A stretch of DNA of 41,775 bases from Oligoflexia bacterium (GTDB taxonomy: Bacteria; Bdellovibrionota; UBA1018). Where the stretch lies: the NCBI GenBank assembly GCA_014376785.1, contig JACMQW010000097.1, forward strand, positions 1 through 41,775, in the 5' to 3' direction. Position 1 is the first letter of the stretch. The number at the start of each line of letters is the position of its first letter. The notes under the pieces were generated by a model. That model searched no databases. It was given only the letters and a program-made list of their open reading frames with translations, and was not told the origin of the DNA. The position numbers and the translations under genes are program-made. Below, one piece after another: positions 28,098 to 34,326 of this stretch.

Positions 28098-28748
28098 ATG
28101 GAAAGCCGTAAAAACTCCCGCAAACTCACCACTCGCCTCTCTAAGTCTTCTGAACTCCCGGTGGATTACACCCGTGGTGTTCGAGAAGTCTACGCAACCA
28201 ATTTCGATGAAGGCTTAGCCGCTTTGGCAAGTCTGCAAAAAGTGAAAAATCACTTCGAAGTTCGCGGAACCATTTTCGCTGACGAAATCGTGCTGGCGGT
28301 ATCGCTCGTGAGTGAAGGCGTAATGGCCGCAACCACCGTACACGCTTCAGTAGACTTCGATCCGAAAGCATCGAGCCCGACGGCGACTGACCTCTTAAAC
28401 CTCTGCATGGACGGCGTGGGAAGCGTGTTTGCTAGACTGCTCGATCCAACCGAACCGGCGACCCTCGAAAAGCTCACCTCCACCGCACTCGGTGACTTCG
28501 ATGAAATTCCACTGGAGTGGACGAAGGTCGATTTCGAAGGAAAACGCGTTTGGCTTTTCGTTGATCGGTCAAATCCGACGCTGGATGAGTTGGCGGATGA
28601 CTGGCTTACGAAAAACGACCCGCTCACTCATGCCGAAGAAGAAGAATACGAAGAAGAAACCAAAGACAATTTCATGACCGGTAAAGACGGGAAGAAATAC
28701 TCCACCGATGACGACGAAGACGGTGAAGGCGGCGGACAGATTCATTGA
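28098..28748 (+). CDS. protein of unknown function with acidic tail, operonic with the HtrA gene
   Basis: A 216-residue product not recognised by family. Residues about 20-165 are a mixed alpha/beta domain (YTRGVREVYATNFDEGLAALASLQ, EVRGTIFADEIVLAVSLVSEGVMAATTVHASVDFD); the last 45 residues are strongly acidic (EEEEYEEETKDN, DDDEDGEGGG). There is no signal peptide, so it is probably cytoplasmic. An AAGGA lies 12 bases upstream, within the preceding gene. The 3-bp gap suggests co-expression with the protease. Confidence 0.68.
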   Translation: MESRKNSRKLTTRLSKSSELPVDYTRGVREVYATNFDEGLAALASLQKVKNHFEVRGTIFADEIVLAVSLVSEGVMAATTVHASVDFDPKASSPTATDLLNLCMDGVGSVFARLLDPTEPATLEKLTSTALGDFDEIPLEWTKVDFEGKRVWLFVDRSNPTLDELADDWLTKNDPLTHAEEEEYEEETKDNFMTGKDGKKYSTDDDEDGEGGGQIH

Positions 28749-28789
28749 GGTTAGAATAATAAACCTGTCGCCCAGACTCGGTCTACGAA

Positions 28790-29122
28790 TTATTCCGCTT
28801 CGTAACCGCACGTAATTTCATCTACGATGGCGATCATGCGGTGTTTGCCGAACTGGTTACGGCGATGAAGGATATTCGCCGCTCCGGTCTCATGCTTATA
28901 GAGTTCTAAGGTCTCGCCCTCCACGTCGACTTTTTTCGTCGACCAGTCCAGAGCCATCATTTTTCGGTCTTCAAATTTACCCGTACGATCGCGGCAGTAC
29001 CCGTCCATATTTGAACGAGCCATGATGAAATGGCCATCTGAGAGTGGAACGAAAACTTCCTCCCCAGCTGCGTAAGCGGAGAACGAACTCAGAGCGAGGA
29101 AAAGCATCAAAGTTTTTTTCAT
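28790..29122 (-). CDS. small exported protein, function unknown
   Basis: A 110-residue product with a clear signal peptide (KKTLMLFLALSSFSAYAAG). The mature part has FVPLSDGHFIMARSNMDGYCRD near its start and a C-terminal ITCGYEAE; the two Cys could form a disulfide. No family recognised. It is followed at 28749-28789 by a short convergent gap without a terminator. Confidence 0.65.
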   Translation of the reverse strand: MKKTLMLFLALSSFSAYAAGEEVFVPLSDGHFIMARSNMDGYCRDRTGKFEDRKMMALDWSTKKVDVEGETLELYKHETGAANILHRRNQFGKHRMIAIVDEITCGYEAE

Positions 29123-29367
29123 AAATCATTTACCTTTGCCCTCCCTATAGCGAATGCCATGCCACCACTGACCTAACCCAGGAAGACAGGTAGAGCCCGT
29201 CTCCGTCGAACGAATGGTCGGGACCCGCACACCGTGAACACCCACCTCGCTCTTTAAACGCCGAACCCCGCAAAACAAATAATGCCCCCCATGTACCAAA
29301 GGCCAAGGGCTGGTTCATAAACAGAGTTTCCGTCGCCAAACGCGCCGATCCCCTTACAAGCCCAACC

Positions 29368-30543
29368 TTAAAACTCCTCTTTCGCTGCTTCAAACTGCGT
29401 CGCCAGCTGCAAGAAAATCTTCGACTCTTGCAAGTCATTAAAAAGGGCTTTCGCTTCCGCACGTGTTTTTTCAAATTCCGCTCGAGACGCACTCCCCGTC
29501 GGCGAAACCAAACCAAGCAGCGGCTCAGCCTCGCGCTTCAGTGAATCATCTTCGGCCACCGCTTCTTCCAAGGCGGAGTGAACGTATTCCTTAATTCCGG
29601 TACTCGATTTCATCTTTCCCAGTCGCCGCACTAGACTCCCGATGTAGTAAAAGCCATCTTTCGAAATTCCCACGGCCCGCTTTAAGAGATCGGATTCATC
29701 GGGAATGAACTTACTTTTCAAATCTTCGTCCGAGATCGTGACCTTCTTCACTTTGATGGTCTCGTCGAGGTAAAACATCCCGGGAAAGCTCATGATCAGA
29801 ATCGGAATCGAACGCACTTCCCGGCGGAGCTTGTGGATTCCTTCTTCGATTTTAGTAGGATCCAGCTTTCCGCTCATCACATCGGCGTGGGTCTTCCTTA
29901 AGTCGTCCGCCATGGACTGCAGGATCTTCTTTTTCAAAGTACTTTTTTTCTCGATCGATTCTGAATTCTGTACGACGTCCATCATGCGTCCATAAACTTT
30001 ATTTTCCCCGATCCATCCAAACCGCTCGAGATTTTGGTTTAACCGCGCGCGCTGAGATAAAATTCGACCTTGGAAGAGAGCCTCAATCCGAGGGGTCATC
30101 GCCGCTTTAAGCGCCGAATCTTCTCGGAGCGCTTCTAACATCTCCGTCTCAAACACATAGTCTCCAATCGAGTTCTCGAGCACCTTACCCATGTCTCGCA
30201 TCGTCTCGTAGTAAACGGCGTCGACGGAGTGCAGAGCTTTTGCGATTCCTTCGAGTTGGTAGGAAAACCCTCGCGTGTCGGCCTTCACCAAATTTTCCAC
30301 TCGAGACAGGTCCATCAGGCCAGGGGCATTCAAGACCGCGTAAATCTGCGTCAGACTTTTTCGAACGTAGGGCAGAAGCGCCAATTCATCGTCCGTGTAT
30401 TTTTGAAGGGATTTGAAAAAAAGCCTGCACCTTTCCGCAGGCACGCGAGGCACCGAAGTAGGATCATCACCGGCGATGGCGAGGGGAAATGACGTCATAA
30501 CCAAACCTAAAATTCCTGCGACCAGGGCGGAGCTTTTAAACAT
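29368..30543 (-). CDS. exported alpha-helical protein, CHAD-like in part
   Basis: A 391-residue protein with a signal peptide (LVAGILGLVMTSFPLAIAG). The mature part is almost entirely helical and rich in Lys, Arg, Glu and Leu, without Cys except one near residue 39. One stretch (about 230-255, IEEGIHKLRREVRSIPILIMSF) resembles the first helix of CHAD domains (H-x-L-R-x-x-R-R-x-R), which bind polyphosphate. This is weak. The gene follows katE by 72 bp, and its ribosome-binding site lies in a 15-bp hairpin. No further function can be given. Confidence 0.68.
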   Translation of the reverse strand: MFKSSALVAGILGLVMTSFPLAIAGDDPTSVPRVPAERCRLFFKSLQKYTDDELALLPYVRKSLTQIYAVLNAPGLMDLSRVENLVKADTRGFSYQLEGIAKALHSVDAVYYETMRDMGKVLENSIGDYVFETEMLEALREDSALKAAMTPRIEALFQGRILSQRARLNQNLERFGWIGENKVYGRMMDVVQNSESIEKKSTLKKKILQSMADDLRKTHADVMSGKLDPTKIEEGIHKLRREVRSIPILIMSFPGMFYLDETIKVKKVTISDEDLKSKFIPDESDLLKRAVGISKDGFYYIGSLVRRLGKMKSSTGIKEYVHSALEEAVAEDDSLKREAEPLLGLVSPTGSASRAEFEKTRAEAKALFNDLQESKIFLQLATQFEAAKEEF

Positions 30544-30582
30544 GCGGACCTCTTTTCCATTGTTGCAGGAAAAGAGGTCCGC
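30544..30582 (-). promoter_or_regulatory. 15-bp hairpin burying the ribosome-binding site of the exported helical protein
   Basis: GCGGACCTCTTTTCC (30544-30558) and GGAAAAGAGGTCCGC (30568-30582) are perfect complements with a 9-base loop. On the minus strand the second arm, with AAGAGGT, ends directly at the ATG at 30543, so the Shine-Dalgarno is fully inside the stem. It also lies behind katE and may serve as its terminator, but only a weak T-rich tract (ATGTTT) follows. Confidence 0.85.
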
Positions 30583-30615
30583 TACTAGTTCCTCGCTGTT
30601 CGAAATCTCCCAGGT

Positions 30616-32844
30616 CTAGACCGGCATATTTTTCGTAGACGCTTCCCGGGCCCAATCACGGAATGGTTTAGAAGCTTCTACGAAAGTCTTCGCTCCAGCC
30701 GAGTTCACACCCACGTCCGTCCAAGGTTTGGCGCCGCCTTTCAAGAAAGGACGAAGGGCGGCCTCGACCACGGCATTCCCTTCTCCACCGGCTCCGATTG
30801 ACTTGCACTGCTTATAAGCTTGGGCAACGAATCGGATTGCCGGACCGCTCGCGGCTAGGGCGTTCCCACTTGCCCCCCCCGGGATAAAGACAGCGTCATA
30901 GAGAAAGGCGCTCACAATATCGAGGGATTGGTCGGCTTTAATCTTTTTGCCTCCCTTTGCCGGAAACTCGCCCATGCGGGGTCCGACGAGATCCACCTTC
31001 GCGCCTTCCTTTTCTAACGCGGATTTTAGAGCCGTCACCATACCCGCATCCACGCCGTCCCCCACTAAAAAGGCGAACTTCCGGGTCAGCAGATTTTTCG
31101 GATCGTTTTTAATGATGCTGAGAGCCCGCGATGTTTTCGGGGACTTCACTGCTTTCTTCGAAATCGAAACGTCATCTTCCTTTGCCATTTCTAGCGAACG
31201 ATTCGGAGGAATGATGTTGTTTTCTGGATCGGCCGGATTCGGCGGAATCGAGAAGTCTTTCGGAACCGCTACTCCCACTTTTCCAGAGATCGCCGCCGCG
31301 AGATCCCGGTCGACTTGGGAGATCAGTCCCAACACTCTCTCGCGCACGGCTTCGGTTTCGACCTTCGAGAGCTCGAAACTGATCGCATCACGGATGTGCC
31401 CTTGTTCGATCGGATCTTGGCTTTGAAAAAACATTCTCGCCTGGGAGAAGTGATCACCGAAACTCGTGCTCCGAGCGCGTACTTTATGAGCATCGACCCG
31501 TTCGGTGTGATGAACGTAGGATTTCATTTTTTCCGGTGAGTGAAAGGGACAACCTCCACCGAGTGAGTTCGGTTCGTAGGCGACTCGGCCGGAAGGAATC
31601 AGTTGCTGTCCAAATCCATCGCGCTGGTGATTATTCACCGGAGCAAGCGGTCGATTCACAGGAAGCTGATGAAAGTTAGGTCCACCGAGTCTAATCAGCT
31701 GGGTGTCCGTATACGAGAAAAGACGACCCTGAAGTAAAGGATCATTCGAGACATCGAGTCCTGGAACTAAGTGGCCAGGATGGAAAGCCGCCTGTTCAAT
31801 CTCTGAAAAAAAGTTATCGGGATTTCGATCGAGCGTCATTGTTCCCACGAGTTCTACTGGAACCAATTCCTCAGGAATGAGCTTCGTTGGATCAAGGAGA
31901 TCGAAGTCGAACTTAAATTCGTCTTCTTCCGGCACGATTTGCAGCCCTAAGTCCCACTGCGGAAAATTCCCTTGGTCGATATTTTCCCAAAGGTCGCGGC
32001 GGTGAAAATCACCGTCATGTCCCATGATGTTCATCGACTCTTCCCATGTAAGGCTATGAACTCCGAGACGCGGCTTCCAATGAAATTTTACGAAGCTCGG
32101 CTTTCCTTCGTCATTAATGAGTTTGAATGTGTGCACCCCGAAACCTTCCATCATGCGCAGGCTGCGAGGGATCGCGCGGTCGCTCATCACCCAGAAGATC
32201 ATGTGCATGCTTTCCGGCATCAGCGAAATAAAATCCCAGAACGTATCATGGGCGCTAGCGGCTTGCGGAATTTCGTTATGCGGTTCCGGCTTTATAGCAT
32301 GAATCAAGTCGGGAAATTTCATCGCGTCTTGAATAAAAAACACCGGAATATTATTTCCGACAAAATCGTAATTGCCTTCATCGGTGTAAAACTTCACCGC
32401 GAATCCCCGAGCGTCCCTGGCGGTGTCTGCAGAACCACGGCTTCCCGCTACGGTCGAAAAACGCGTCAGAACCGGAGTCTTTTTTCCTACTGCGCTTAAA
32501 AATCCCGCCGACGTGAATTTCGTCATTTTCTTTGTACACTCGAAAGTGCCGAAAGCCCCCGCGCCCCTGGCGTGTACGATGCGCTCCGGAATTCGCTCAT
32601 GATCGAAGTGCGTGATCTTTTCACGAAGCACGAAGTCTTCCAGCAGTGCGGGACCACGTGGACCTGCTTTCAAGCTGTTGTGGTTATCGGAAAGTCGCAC
32701 TCCCTGGTTTGTGGTGAGGAAATCGCCCGATTCTCCGGGCGGCGGAGACATTAAATCGGACCGTTCTTTCCCCGCCGATGATGCGGACTGGGGTTGAGCT
32801 GATTTTTTTGTCTTGGACGCAGATTTTCGGTTTTTCTTTTTCAT
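30616..32844 (-). CDS. katE: large-subunit (HPII-type) catalase
   Basis: A 742-residue clade II catalase that breaks down hydrogen peroxide. H91 (RIVHARGAGAFG), N164 (FVGNNIPVFF), the proximal heme Tyr Y378 (LFSYTDTQL) and H355 (FHPGH) align with E. coli HPII H128, N201, Y415 and H392 at a constant offset of 37, so the heme pocket including the His-Tyr crosslink pair is kept. The C-terminal 170 residues (RKFAFLVGDGVDAGMV..., VFIPGGASGNAL) form the flavodoxin/GATase-like domain of this clade. The N-terminal 25 residues are Lys/Ser-rich. The start ATG is at 32844. It is divergent from the dadA-like gene. Confidence 0.94.
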   Translation of the reverse strand: MKKKNRKSASKTKKSAQPQSASSAGKERSDLMSPPPGESGDFLTTNQGVRLSDNHNSLKAGPRGPALLEDFVLREKITHFDHERIPERIVHARGAGAFGTFECTKKMTKFTSAGFLSAVGKKTPVLTRFSTVAGSRGSADTARDARGFAVKFYTDEGNYDFVGNNIPVFFIQDAMKFPDLIHAIKPEPHNEIPQAASAHDTFWDFISLMPESMHMIFWVMSDRAIPRSLRMMEGFGVHTFKLINDEGKPSFVKFHWKPRLGVHSLTWEESMNIMGHDGDFHRRDLWENIDQGNFPQWDLGLQIVPEEDEFKFDFDLLDPTKLIPEELVPVELVGTMTLDRNPDNFFSEIEQAAFHPGHLVPGLDVSNDPLLQGRLFSYTDTQLIRLGGPNFHQLPVNRPLAPVNNHQRDGFGQQLIPSGRVAYEPNSLGGGCPFHSPEKMKSYVHHTERVDAHKVRARSTSFGDHFSQARMFFQSQDPIEQGHIRDAISFELSKVETEAVRERVLGLISQVDRDLAAAISGKVGVAVPKDFSIPPNPADPENNIIPPNRSLEMAKEDDVSISKKAVKSPKTSRALSIIKNDPKNLLTRKFAFLVGDGVDAGMVTALKSALEKEGAKVDLVGPRMGEFPAKGGKKIKADQSLDIVSAFLYDAVFIPGGASGNALAASGPAIRFVAQAYKQCKSIGAGGEGNAVVEAALRPFLKGGAKPWTDVGVNSAGAKTFVEASKPFRDWAREASTKNMPV

Positions 32845-33063
32845 GGATGCTCCGGGGTAATTTTCGTTTGTTCAGTAAGCTTCATTATATGTGCCACTGG
32901 CGACGCCGCCTTTTGCCTAAGCGGATCCTACCCCCTAGCGCCCGGCCCCGAGCACCCTGGTCCGACGACTGCGCTTTAAAAAGCGAGGCATGACGAGTTG
33001 CGCAAGACGCATTCGTAAAGGCAGTGATTGCTCAGTGCCTCATGCGGGTTTAGGATGTGCCGA

Positions 33064-34326
33064 ATGAATATCAACTCAGGGCAGAAGAAGTCGGACATCA
33101 TCATCGTCGGTGGCGGAGTGATCGGAATGTCCGTGGCTTATGAACTCGCGAAGCGCGGCGTCGGCGTGACCGTGATCGACAAAGGAGAACCTGGATTTGG
33201 TTGCTCCTACGGAAATGCAGGTTGGCTCACACCCTGCTTTTCAATGCCGCTGCCGATGCCCGGAATGCTCCTGAAATCCATTAAGTGGATGACCGATCCG
33301 GAGAGCCCCCTCTACATTCAACCCCGCCCGAGCTGGCTTCTGATTTCCTGGCTGACTCGCTTTCTTTTCGCCATGAACGAAAAACAAATGGTGAAATCAG
33401 TCACTGCTCTGACTGAGATTTCACAGTACAGCTTAGCCGCTTATTCTAAGCTCTCCGGAGAAACCGGCCACGACATCCACTTCGAAAAAAAGGGCCTGCT
33501 GATGGCCGCGAATACGAAGGATGGATTCGATTATGCCCAGACCGAGATGAATCTCGTCTCTGAGCACGGCGTTCCCGGACGCCGCATGAGCGCCGAGGAA
33601 TTGAAAGCGTTCGAACCGGCCCTCACGGGTCCTGTCGTAGGCGGAGTATACTTTCCGGATGAAGCGCATGCGGAGCCCCTCGAAGTGGTTCGCGCACTCA
33701 CGAAAGGTGCGATCGCGCATGGCGCGAAAATCCTCTCCGGTCATGAGCTCATCGATTGTGAAACTCGCGACGGAAAAATCGTTTCGATTCGCACGACCAA
33801 AGGAGTCCTCCGCGCCGATGAGTACGTGTTTGCGGCGGGATCTTGGTCGACCGGCGTCGGCCGCGCGCTGGGACTGAATGTGCCGATCCTCGGTGGAAAA
33901 GGTTATTCGTTCATCACGAAGCCTGTGAACCCAAATCCGATACATCCGTTGATGCTGGTTGAGAAAAAAGTAGCAATCACTCCGCGGAACGGAACCCTCC
34001 GCATCGCCGGGACCCTGGAACTCGTGAACAACGATTATTCGATCAGCCCTCGACGGATCGATTCGATCATTAAAGGTGCTCGTGCGTTTATGAACGTGCC
34101 GGAAGAATTTGAGTTTTCGGAACTCTGGCGCGGTCTCCGTCCTTGCTCTCCCGACGGGGTGCCTTTGATCGGTTACACGAAACAGTACTCGAATCTCTTC
34201 CTAGCGACCGGACACCAAATGCTCGGCCTCCAGTCCGCGATGGGTTCTGCTCGGTTGGCGGGTGATCTAATTCTGGGCGCGAAGCCTCTTTTTGATCCGA
34301 AGCCCTTTAACCCGAATCGTTTTTAG
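33064..34326 (+). CDS. dadA: D-amino-acid dehydrogenase-like FAD oxidoreductase
   Basis: A 420-residue flavoprotein of the DAO family. The FAD-binding fold is IIIVGGGVIGMSVAYELAKRGVGVTVIDKG (about 11-40), followed by SYGNAGWLTPCFSMPLPMPG, typical of D-amino acid dehydrogenase small subunits; the C-terminal LWRGLRPCSPDGVPLIGY and ATGHQMLGL segments match too. It oxidises D-amino acids to 2-oxo acids, passing electrons to the respiratory chain. The start is ATG 33064, with AGGATG six bases before it; the upstream frame from 33028 is not supported. Substrate preference cannot be told. The next gene begins 7 bp later. Confidence 0.85.
   Translation: MNINSGQKKSDIIIVGGGVIGMSVAYELAKRGVGVTVIDKGEPGFGCSYGNAGWLTPCFSMPLPMPGMLLKSIKWMTDPESPLYIQPRPSWLLISWLTRFLFAMNEKQMVKSVTALTEISQYSLAAYSKLSGETGHDIHFEKKGLLMAANTKDGFDYAQTEMNLVSEHGVPGRRMSAEELKAFEPALTGPVVGGVYFPDEAHAEPLEVVRALTKGAIAHGAKILSGHELIDCETRDGKIVSIRTTKGVLRADEYVFAAGSWSTGVGRALGLNVPILGGKGYSFITKPVNPNPIHPLMLVEKKVAITPRNGTLRIAGTLELVNNDYSISPRRIDSIIKGARAFMNVPEEFEFSELWRGLRPCSPDGVPLIGYTKQYSNLFLATGHQMLGLQSAMGSARLAGDLILGAKPLFDPKPFNPNRF

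What the first reader, a model, noticed from the sequence alone, without database searches (positions are those of the whole stretch)
30544..30582. Perfect 15-bp hairpin that buries the Shine-Dalgarno and abuts the start codon
The stem arms at 30544-30558 and 30568-30582 are exact complements with a 9-base loop, and the arm nearest the gene contains AAGAGGT and ends at the ATG. This geometry suggests translational control (RNA thermometer, protein-dependent opening, or coupling to katE readthrough) of an exported helical protein with a CHAD-like segment. A competing explanation is that it is the katE terminator, though only a short T tract follows.
Basis: partly seen in the sequence, partly recalled or inferred. 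Interest (0 to 1): 0.65.

Follow-up and report, generated by a model that had tools for sequence, protein, structure and literature searches.

The report
Hairpin hiding a gene's ribosome site
A perfect 15-pair RNA hairpin sits exactly where ribosomes would have to land to read the gene behind a catalase gene, so RNA running on from the catalase gene should leave that second gene unread; this is a known kind of switch at a place seen only in this bacterium, and nothing here shows what, if anything, opens it.

Summary
The hairpin is real and not a chance match. Arms 30544-30558 and 30568-30582 pair perfectly (15 bp, 9-nt loop, -27.7 kcal/mol); the gene-side arm holds the Shine-Dalgarno and touches the ATG of ORF 29368-30543(-). 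Among 368 gene starts from this genome and a genus-mate it is the strongest start-abutting hairpin. It does not look like a terminator: no U tract, score -0.8, whereas other T-tract stems of this genome score 20 or more in their better orientation. It is not a thermometer: the Shine-Dalgarno stays about 95% paired at 85 C. The katE stop lies 33 nt before the stem, so ordinary stop-codon coupling should not open it. Neither 25 relatives of the ORF nor the best katE relatives carry it, but the katE-ORF junction was not seen elsewhere either, so covariation cannot be tested. Best reading: a cis-acting RBS lock that keeps katE read-through mRNA translationally silent for the ORF, as in phage T4 gene e and I-TevI. 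A terminator-like site about 100 nt inside the ORF could then end untranslated transcripts, but such sites occur at chance frequency. What opens the lock is unknown. New member of a known kind, modest interest.

The parts
30544..30582 (-). Perfect 15-bp / 9-nt-loop hairpin; 3' arm 30558-30544 holds the Shine-Dalgarno and abuts the ATG
   Evidence: outlier in the genome sample
30548..30554 (-). Buried Shine-Dalgarno AAGAGGT
   Evidence: sequence; unpaired probability 0.0001-0.0007 at 37 C
29368..30543 (-). ORF of 391 aa, predicted exported helical protein; its family is found in 40 of 369 genomes of the phylum
30616..32844 (-). katE-like long catalase (Catalase, Catalase-rel, C-terminal DJ-1/Catalase_C domains), upstream gene, same frame as the ORF; TAG at 30618-30616
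32884..32889 (-). TATAAT, the best promoter-like -10 upstream of katE; no comparable site lies between katE and the ORF
30423..30442 (-). Terminator-like hairpin GCCTGCGGAAAGGTGCAGGC followed by TTTTTTTC, inside the ORF about 100 nt after its start; possible polarity site when the ORF is not translated
   Evidence: score +37; but sense-strand sites of this kind are no more frequent than antisense ones

Best explanation
The hairpin is a cis-acting lock on the ribosome-binding site. RNA that continues from katE into the downstream ORF folds the Shine-Dalgarno into a very stable stem that ends at the ATG, so the ORF is transcribed with katE but hardly translated (occlusion: computed; repression: inferred). 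The ORF would be translated only when the 5' arm is missing or bound: from a transcript that starts or is cut inside the hairpin, or when a trans-acting RNA or protein holds the 5' arm (inferred, not identified). The terminator-like site just inside the ORF may end such untranslated read-through RNA (speculative).
For: Perfect stem burying the Shine-Dalgarno and touching the ATG; -27.7 kcal/mol and Shine-Dalgarno over 99.9% paired at 37 C; most occluded start of 368 and of 379 sampled genes. Not terminator-like: tail ATGTTTAAAA, score -0.8, while the other T-tract stems scored in the sample reach 20 or more in their better orientation. No credible promoter between katE and the ORF, whereas katE has TATAAT at 32889, so the ORF probably lies on katE read-through RNA. 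The start codon is supported by the signal-peptide-like N-terminus, alignable with the genus-mate homologue. The same geometry occurs independently in the phylum: phage-Rha-type genes carry Shine-Dalgarno-burying hairpins, the best a perfect 12-bp stem with z = -3.5. Precedents: T4 gene e, soc, 49 and I-TevI (PMC3014915, PMC2988022).
Against: No comparative support at this locus: 25 relatives of the ORF with usable starts have stems of at most 7 bp there, and katE relatives have either ordinary terminators or nothing similar. No opening mechanism is visible: the only promoter-like site that could start RNA inside the hairpin (extended -10-like TGCAACAAT in the loop) is weak and no better than 1.8% of all window positions. 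A stem this stable could equally serve katE mRNA 3'-end stability, with occlusion as a side effect.
Confidence: 0.58

Rival explanations
1. It is mainly the 3'-end element of katE: an intrinsic terminator with a poor U tract, or an exonuclease-blocking stem, which happens to overlap the ribosome site of the next gene.
For: Position 33 nt after the katE stop and a strong stem; the best katE relative L026 has a terminator directly after its stop.
Against: The tail has 4 T in 9 and the score is -0.8; the other T-tract stems scored in the sample reach 20 or more in their better orientation, and the L026 katE terminator +55. The ORF's only Shine-Dalgarno lies inside the stem, so full termination there would silence a gene that is kept intact.
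Confidence: 0.25
2. A recent palindrome without selected function, made by template switching during replication when katE came to lie in front of the ORF.
For: Perfect arms, single copy in the genome, absent from all relatives, katE absent from the genus-mates searched.
Against: Its exact end at the ATG would be a coincidence; perfect stems of this length are otherwise mostly terminators in this genome. Close strains that could show its age are not in the collections.
Confidence: 0.1
3. Translational coupling: ribosomes from katE (read-through of the in-frame TAG, or a leader ORF through the stem) open the hairpin and start the ORF.
For: katE and the ORF are in the same frame with only the TAG between them; a TTG-started 39-codon frame runs through the stem and stops 5 nt into the ORF.
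Against: Stop codon 33 nt before the stem; the leader frame has no Shine-Dalgarno and a TTG start; an open frame of this length is common by chance.
Confidence: 0.05
4. RNA thermometer controlling the ORF.
For: A Shine-Dalgarno-burying stem before the start codon is the general layout of thermometers.
Against: Perfect stem without mismatches or bulges; Shine-Dalgarno about 95% paired even at 85 C; no Rfam match.
Confidence: 0.02

Closest known systems
Phage T4 gene e (lysozyme), soc, 49, and I-TevI: RBS-sequestering hairpins formed on upstream-initiated transcripts (PMC3014915, PMC2988022)
   Same: Very stable stem that holds the Shine-Dalgarno next to the start codon, on RNA that enters from an upstream gene.
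   Different: In T4 gene e a late promoter lies in the DNA that encodes the 5' strand and yields RNA without it; here only a weak promoter-like site is found in the loop and no transcript data exist.
Intrinsic (rho-independent) terminators of the same genome
   Same: Strong stem shortly after a stop codon.
   Different: No U tract and no flanking A tract; overlaps the next gene's ribosome site.
RNA thermometers (ROSE and fourU types; from general knowledge)
   Same: Stem covering the Shine-Dalgarno.
   Different: Perfect and far too stable to open at a growth temperature.
Shine-Dalgarno-burying hairpins before Phage_pRha-type genes in other genomes of the phylum (found here)
   Same: Stem that buries the Shine-Dalgarno and ends within a few bases of the ATG.
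   Different: Unrelated genes and sequences; there the hairpin recurs in many copies, here it is single.

Membership tests
RBS-sequestering hairpin of the T4 gene e / I-TevI kind | Shine-Dalgarno and/or AUG held in a stable helix on read-through RNA | tested here: met
   -27.7 kcal/mol; Shine-Dalgarno unpaired 0.0007 at 37 C
RBS-sequestering hairpin of the T4 gene e / I-TevI kind | A second promoter placed so that its RNA lacks the 5' arm | tested here: inconclusive
   Only a weak extended -10-like TGCAACAAT in the loop; sigma factor preferences of this organism unknown
RBS-sequestering hairpin of the T4 gene e / I-TevI kind | Measured repression from read-through RNA | not testable with these tools
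   needs reporter assays
Intrinsic terminator | U-rich tail directly after the stem | tested here: not met
   ATGTTTAAAAG; score -0.8 against 20 to 69 for the other T-tract stems in their better orientation
RNA thermometer | Stem that melts in the physiological range | tested here: not met
   about 95% paired at 85 C
Rfam families | Match to any covariance model | tested here: not met
   no match up to E = 1 in 28500-33200
CHAD domain (for the ORF product) | Pfam PF05235 above its cut-off, or a significant profile match | tested here: not met
   window protein no hit; one family member E = 3.9e-4 below the cut-off; hhalign probability about 1%

The most novel reading that the evidence does not exclude
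A two-step silencer at a gene junction: the hairpin stops translation of the ORF on katE read-through RNA, and the exposed, untranslated 5' coding region then forms the intrinsic terminator at 30442-30423, so the start of the downstream gene acts as a conditional transcription end for the catalase gene that opens only when the lock is released (for example by an oxidative-stress RNA or protein).
Probability: 0.12. Interest if true: 0.55.

Novelty: new member of a known kind. Interest (0 to 1): 0.3.

Why it matters
If right, it is a clear bacterial case of a gene insulated at the level of translation from an upstream stress gene, in what appears to be the little-studied phylum of the predatory bdellovibrios (the tools gave no name; inferred from gene content). 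It gives a simple one-mutation test (mismatch the 5' arm) and would warn against reading gene adjacency there as co-expression.

Tried and rejected
1. Thermometer: rejected by the temperature series. 2. Canonical terminator: tail and score fail. 3. A repeated element: the arm sequence occurs without mismatch only at this hairpin. 4. Conservation with the ORF: 25 other members with usable starts have no such stem; three have 6-7 bp stems (L018, L019, L083). Shuffles give 2.5% per gene for 6 bp or more, but sampled real genes give 5%, so this is not convincing. 5. Conservation with katE: genes downstream of the catalase loci show no general Shine-Dalgarno occlusion; only L043 and L047, close relatives of each other, are near the 5% tail. 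6. Finding close strains: two genome-contig scans gave no relatives. 7. Structure of the ORF product from its single sequence: mean pLDDT 41, not used. 8. The intragenic terminator as a selected feature: 33 sense against 48 antisense sites in 381 kb of coding sequence, so frequency alone gives no support. 9. Synteny with the genus-mate: only the ORF itself matched in 40 kb around its homologue.

Full report
OBSERVATION. On the minus strand the sequence is GCGGACCTCTTTTCC TGCAACAAT GGAAAAGAGGTCCGC ATG. The stem is perfect over 15 pairs, the gene-side arm contains AAGAGGT, and the arm is followed without a gap by the ATG of the 391-codon ORF 29368-30543. The hairpin folds at -27.7 kcal/mol; the surrounding 71 nt give z = -6.5, with 0 of 200 shuffles as stable.

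MORE THAN CHANCE. I took 20 stretches of the same genome and with the window scanned 423 kb. There are 18 perfect stems of 12 bp or more; first-order Markov sequence gives about 0.7 (three replicates). Fifteen of the 18 have terminal A/T pairs (A's before, T's after), as intrinsic terminators do, many of them between convergent genes. The window hairpin is one of three without them, and the only one of the three ending at a start codon. Among 368 gene starts of this genome and a genus-mate it is the strongest hairpin ending within 8 nt of the start, and among 379 genes with a recognisable Shine-Dalgarno its Shine-Dalgarno is the most occluded. Gene starts in these surveys were picked by a simple script, so ranks other than first are approximate.

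NOT A THERMOMETER, NOT A GOOD TERMINATOR. The mean unpaired probability of AAGAGG is 0.0007 at 37 C and 0.053 at 85 C. A classical terminator score (stem energy per length plus tail) is -0.8 for the hairpin on the minus strand and -1.4 on the plus strand. The 13 sampled stems with terminal A/T pairs that I scored reach 20 or more in their better orientation and 12.8 or more in either; two terminators of the window score 63 and 65. The score is my implementation of the published form from memory, with two variants of the tail sum; the hairpin falls below zero with both.

SURROUNDINGS. Upstream lies a long catalase (Catalase, Catalase-rel, and C-terminal DJ-1-like/Catalase_C domains) whose TAG at 30618-30616 is 33 nt before the stem. 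It is in the same frame as the ORF and no other stop intervenes. A TTG-started 39-codon frame passes through the stem and stops 5 nt into the ORF; it has no Shine-Dalgarno and I regard it as chance. The gap between the genes has no credible sigma-70-type promoter (the best sites are equalled by 1.4-1.8% of all positions), whereas katE is preceded by TATAAT. So the ORF probably depends on RNA coming from katE, unless a promoter of another type lies in the gap or within katE. Inside the ORF, about 100 nt after the start, is a compact terminator-like site scoring +37. Such sites are not more common on the sense than on the antisense strand of genes (33 against 48 in 381 kb), so its presence may be coincidence.

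RELATIVES. The ORF belongs to a family of predicted exported helical proteins found in 40 of 369 genomes of the phylum, with a conserved G-x-H-x-x-R-[RK]-x-x-R motif. The genus-mate homologue (32% identity) follows exbB/exbD-like genes and an ordinary terminator, without katE. Of 26 members with usable starts, only the window has a strong stem; three have 6-7 bp stems and the rest at most 4 bp. About 5% of sampled real genes have 6 bp or more, so three of 25 is no firm signal. katE is absent from the two genus-mates searched; its best match in the phylum is 62% identical and is followed by an ordinary terminator. The stem therefore is a property of this junction, and covariation, the best comparative test, cannot be done with the collections at hand.

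MECHANISM. From the anatomy I commit to a lock on translation initiation: katE read-through RNA carries the ORF in a form ribosomes cannot start on. Shown by computation: the stem, its stability, the occlusion, the lack of a U tract. Inferred: repression in the cell, dependence on katE read-through, and the need for RNA lacking the 5' arm, or for a trans-acting partner, to express the ORF. Unknown: what opens it. The closest tested systems are T4 gene e and I-TevI, where read-through RNA is silent (100-fold for gene e) and RNA from a promoter in the 5'-arm DNA is translated (PMC3014915, PMC2988022). The promoter part of that scheme is not established here. A katE 3'-end element remains the main rival.

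AN INDEPENDENT PARALLEL. While measuring the background I met a 12-bp perfect stem that buries the Shine-Dalgarno of a Phage_pRha gene in another genome of the phylum (L076). Homologues of that gene occur in 43 of 369 genomes, often in several copies and decayed ones, and roughly ten of the 30 inspected have a hairpin of the same layout. Pair counts on 13 of them give 7 cells with changes on both sides against 3.5 in shuffles (8 of 500 shuffles as high) and the highest covariation score at the true register; the rows were partly chosen because they fold, so this is suggestive only. It shows that the layout recurs in the phylum, not that the window's copy works.

VERDICT. Real, unusual within its genome, of a known mechanistic kind, with no evidence yet for regulation. 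Interest 0.3.

Noticed in passing
L076:2468-2935 (-) and L105, L121, L123-L126, L128, L130, L132, L134: Phage_pRha-type genes in other genomes of the phylum often carry a Shine-Dalgarno-burying hairpin just before the ATG, with changes in both arms; the genes are multi-copy and many are decayed.
   Followed up: partly
window 30423-30442 (-): Compact hairpin followed by seven T inside the ORF, a terminator-like site about 100 nt after the start codon.
   Followed up: partly
L043 and L047 (catalase loci), gene 99 nt after the catalase stop: Both related genomes have a 7-bp perfect stem (TCTCCAC...GTGGAGA) covering the Shine-Dalgarno of a small exported protein gene downstream of catalase.
   Followed up: partly
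L060:3007-3055: 23-bp perfect A-tract/T-tract stem with a 3-nt loop between two divergently called genes, an unusual place for a bidirectional terminator (gene starts not verified).
   Followed up: no
L071:6831-6871: 13-bp perfect G+C-rich stem (GGATCCGCCGCTC...) inside a called gene near its 3' end, without a T tract.
   Followed up: no
window 30616-32844 (-): Long katE-type catalase absent from both genus-mates searched; best match in the phylum 62% identical, which suggests gene transfer or repeated loss.
   Followed up: partly
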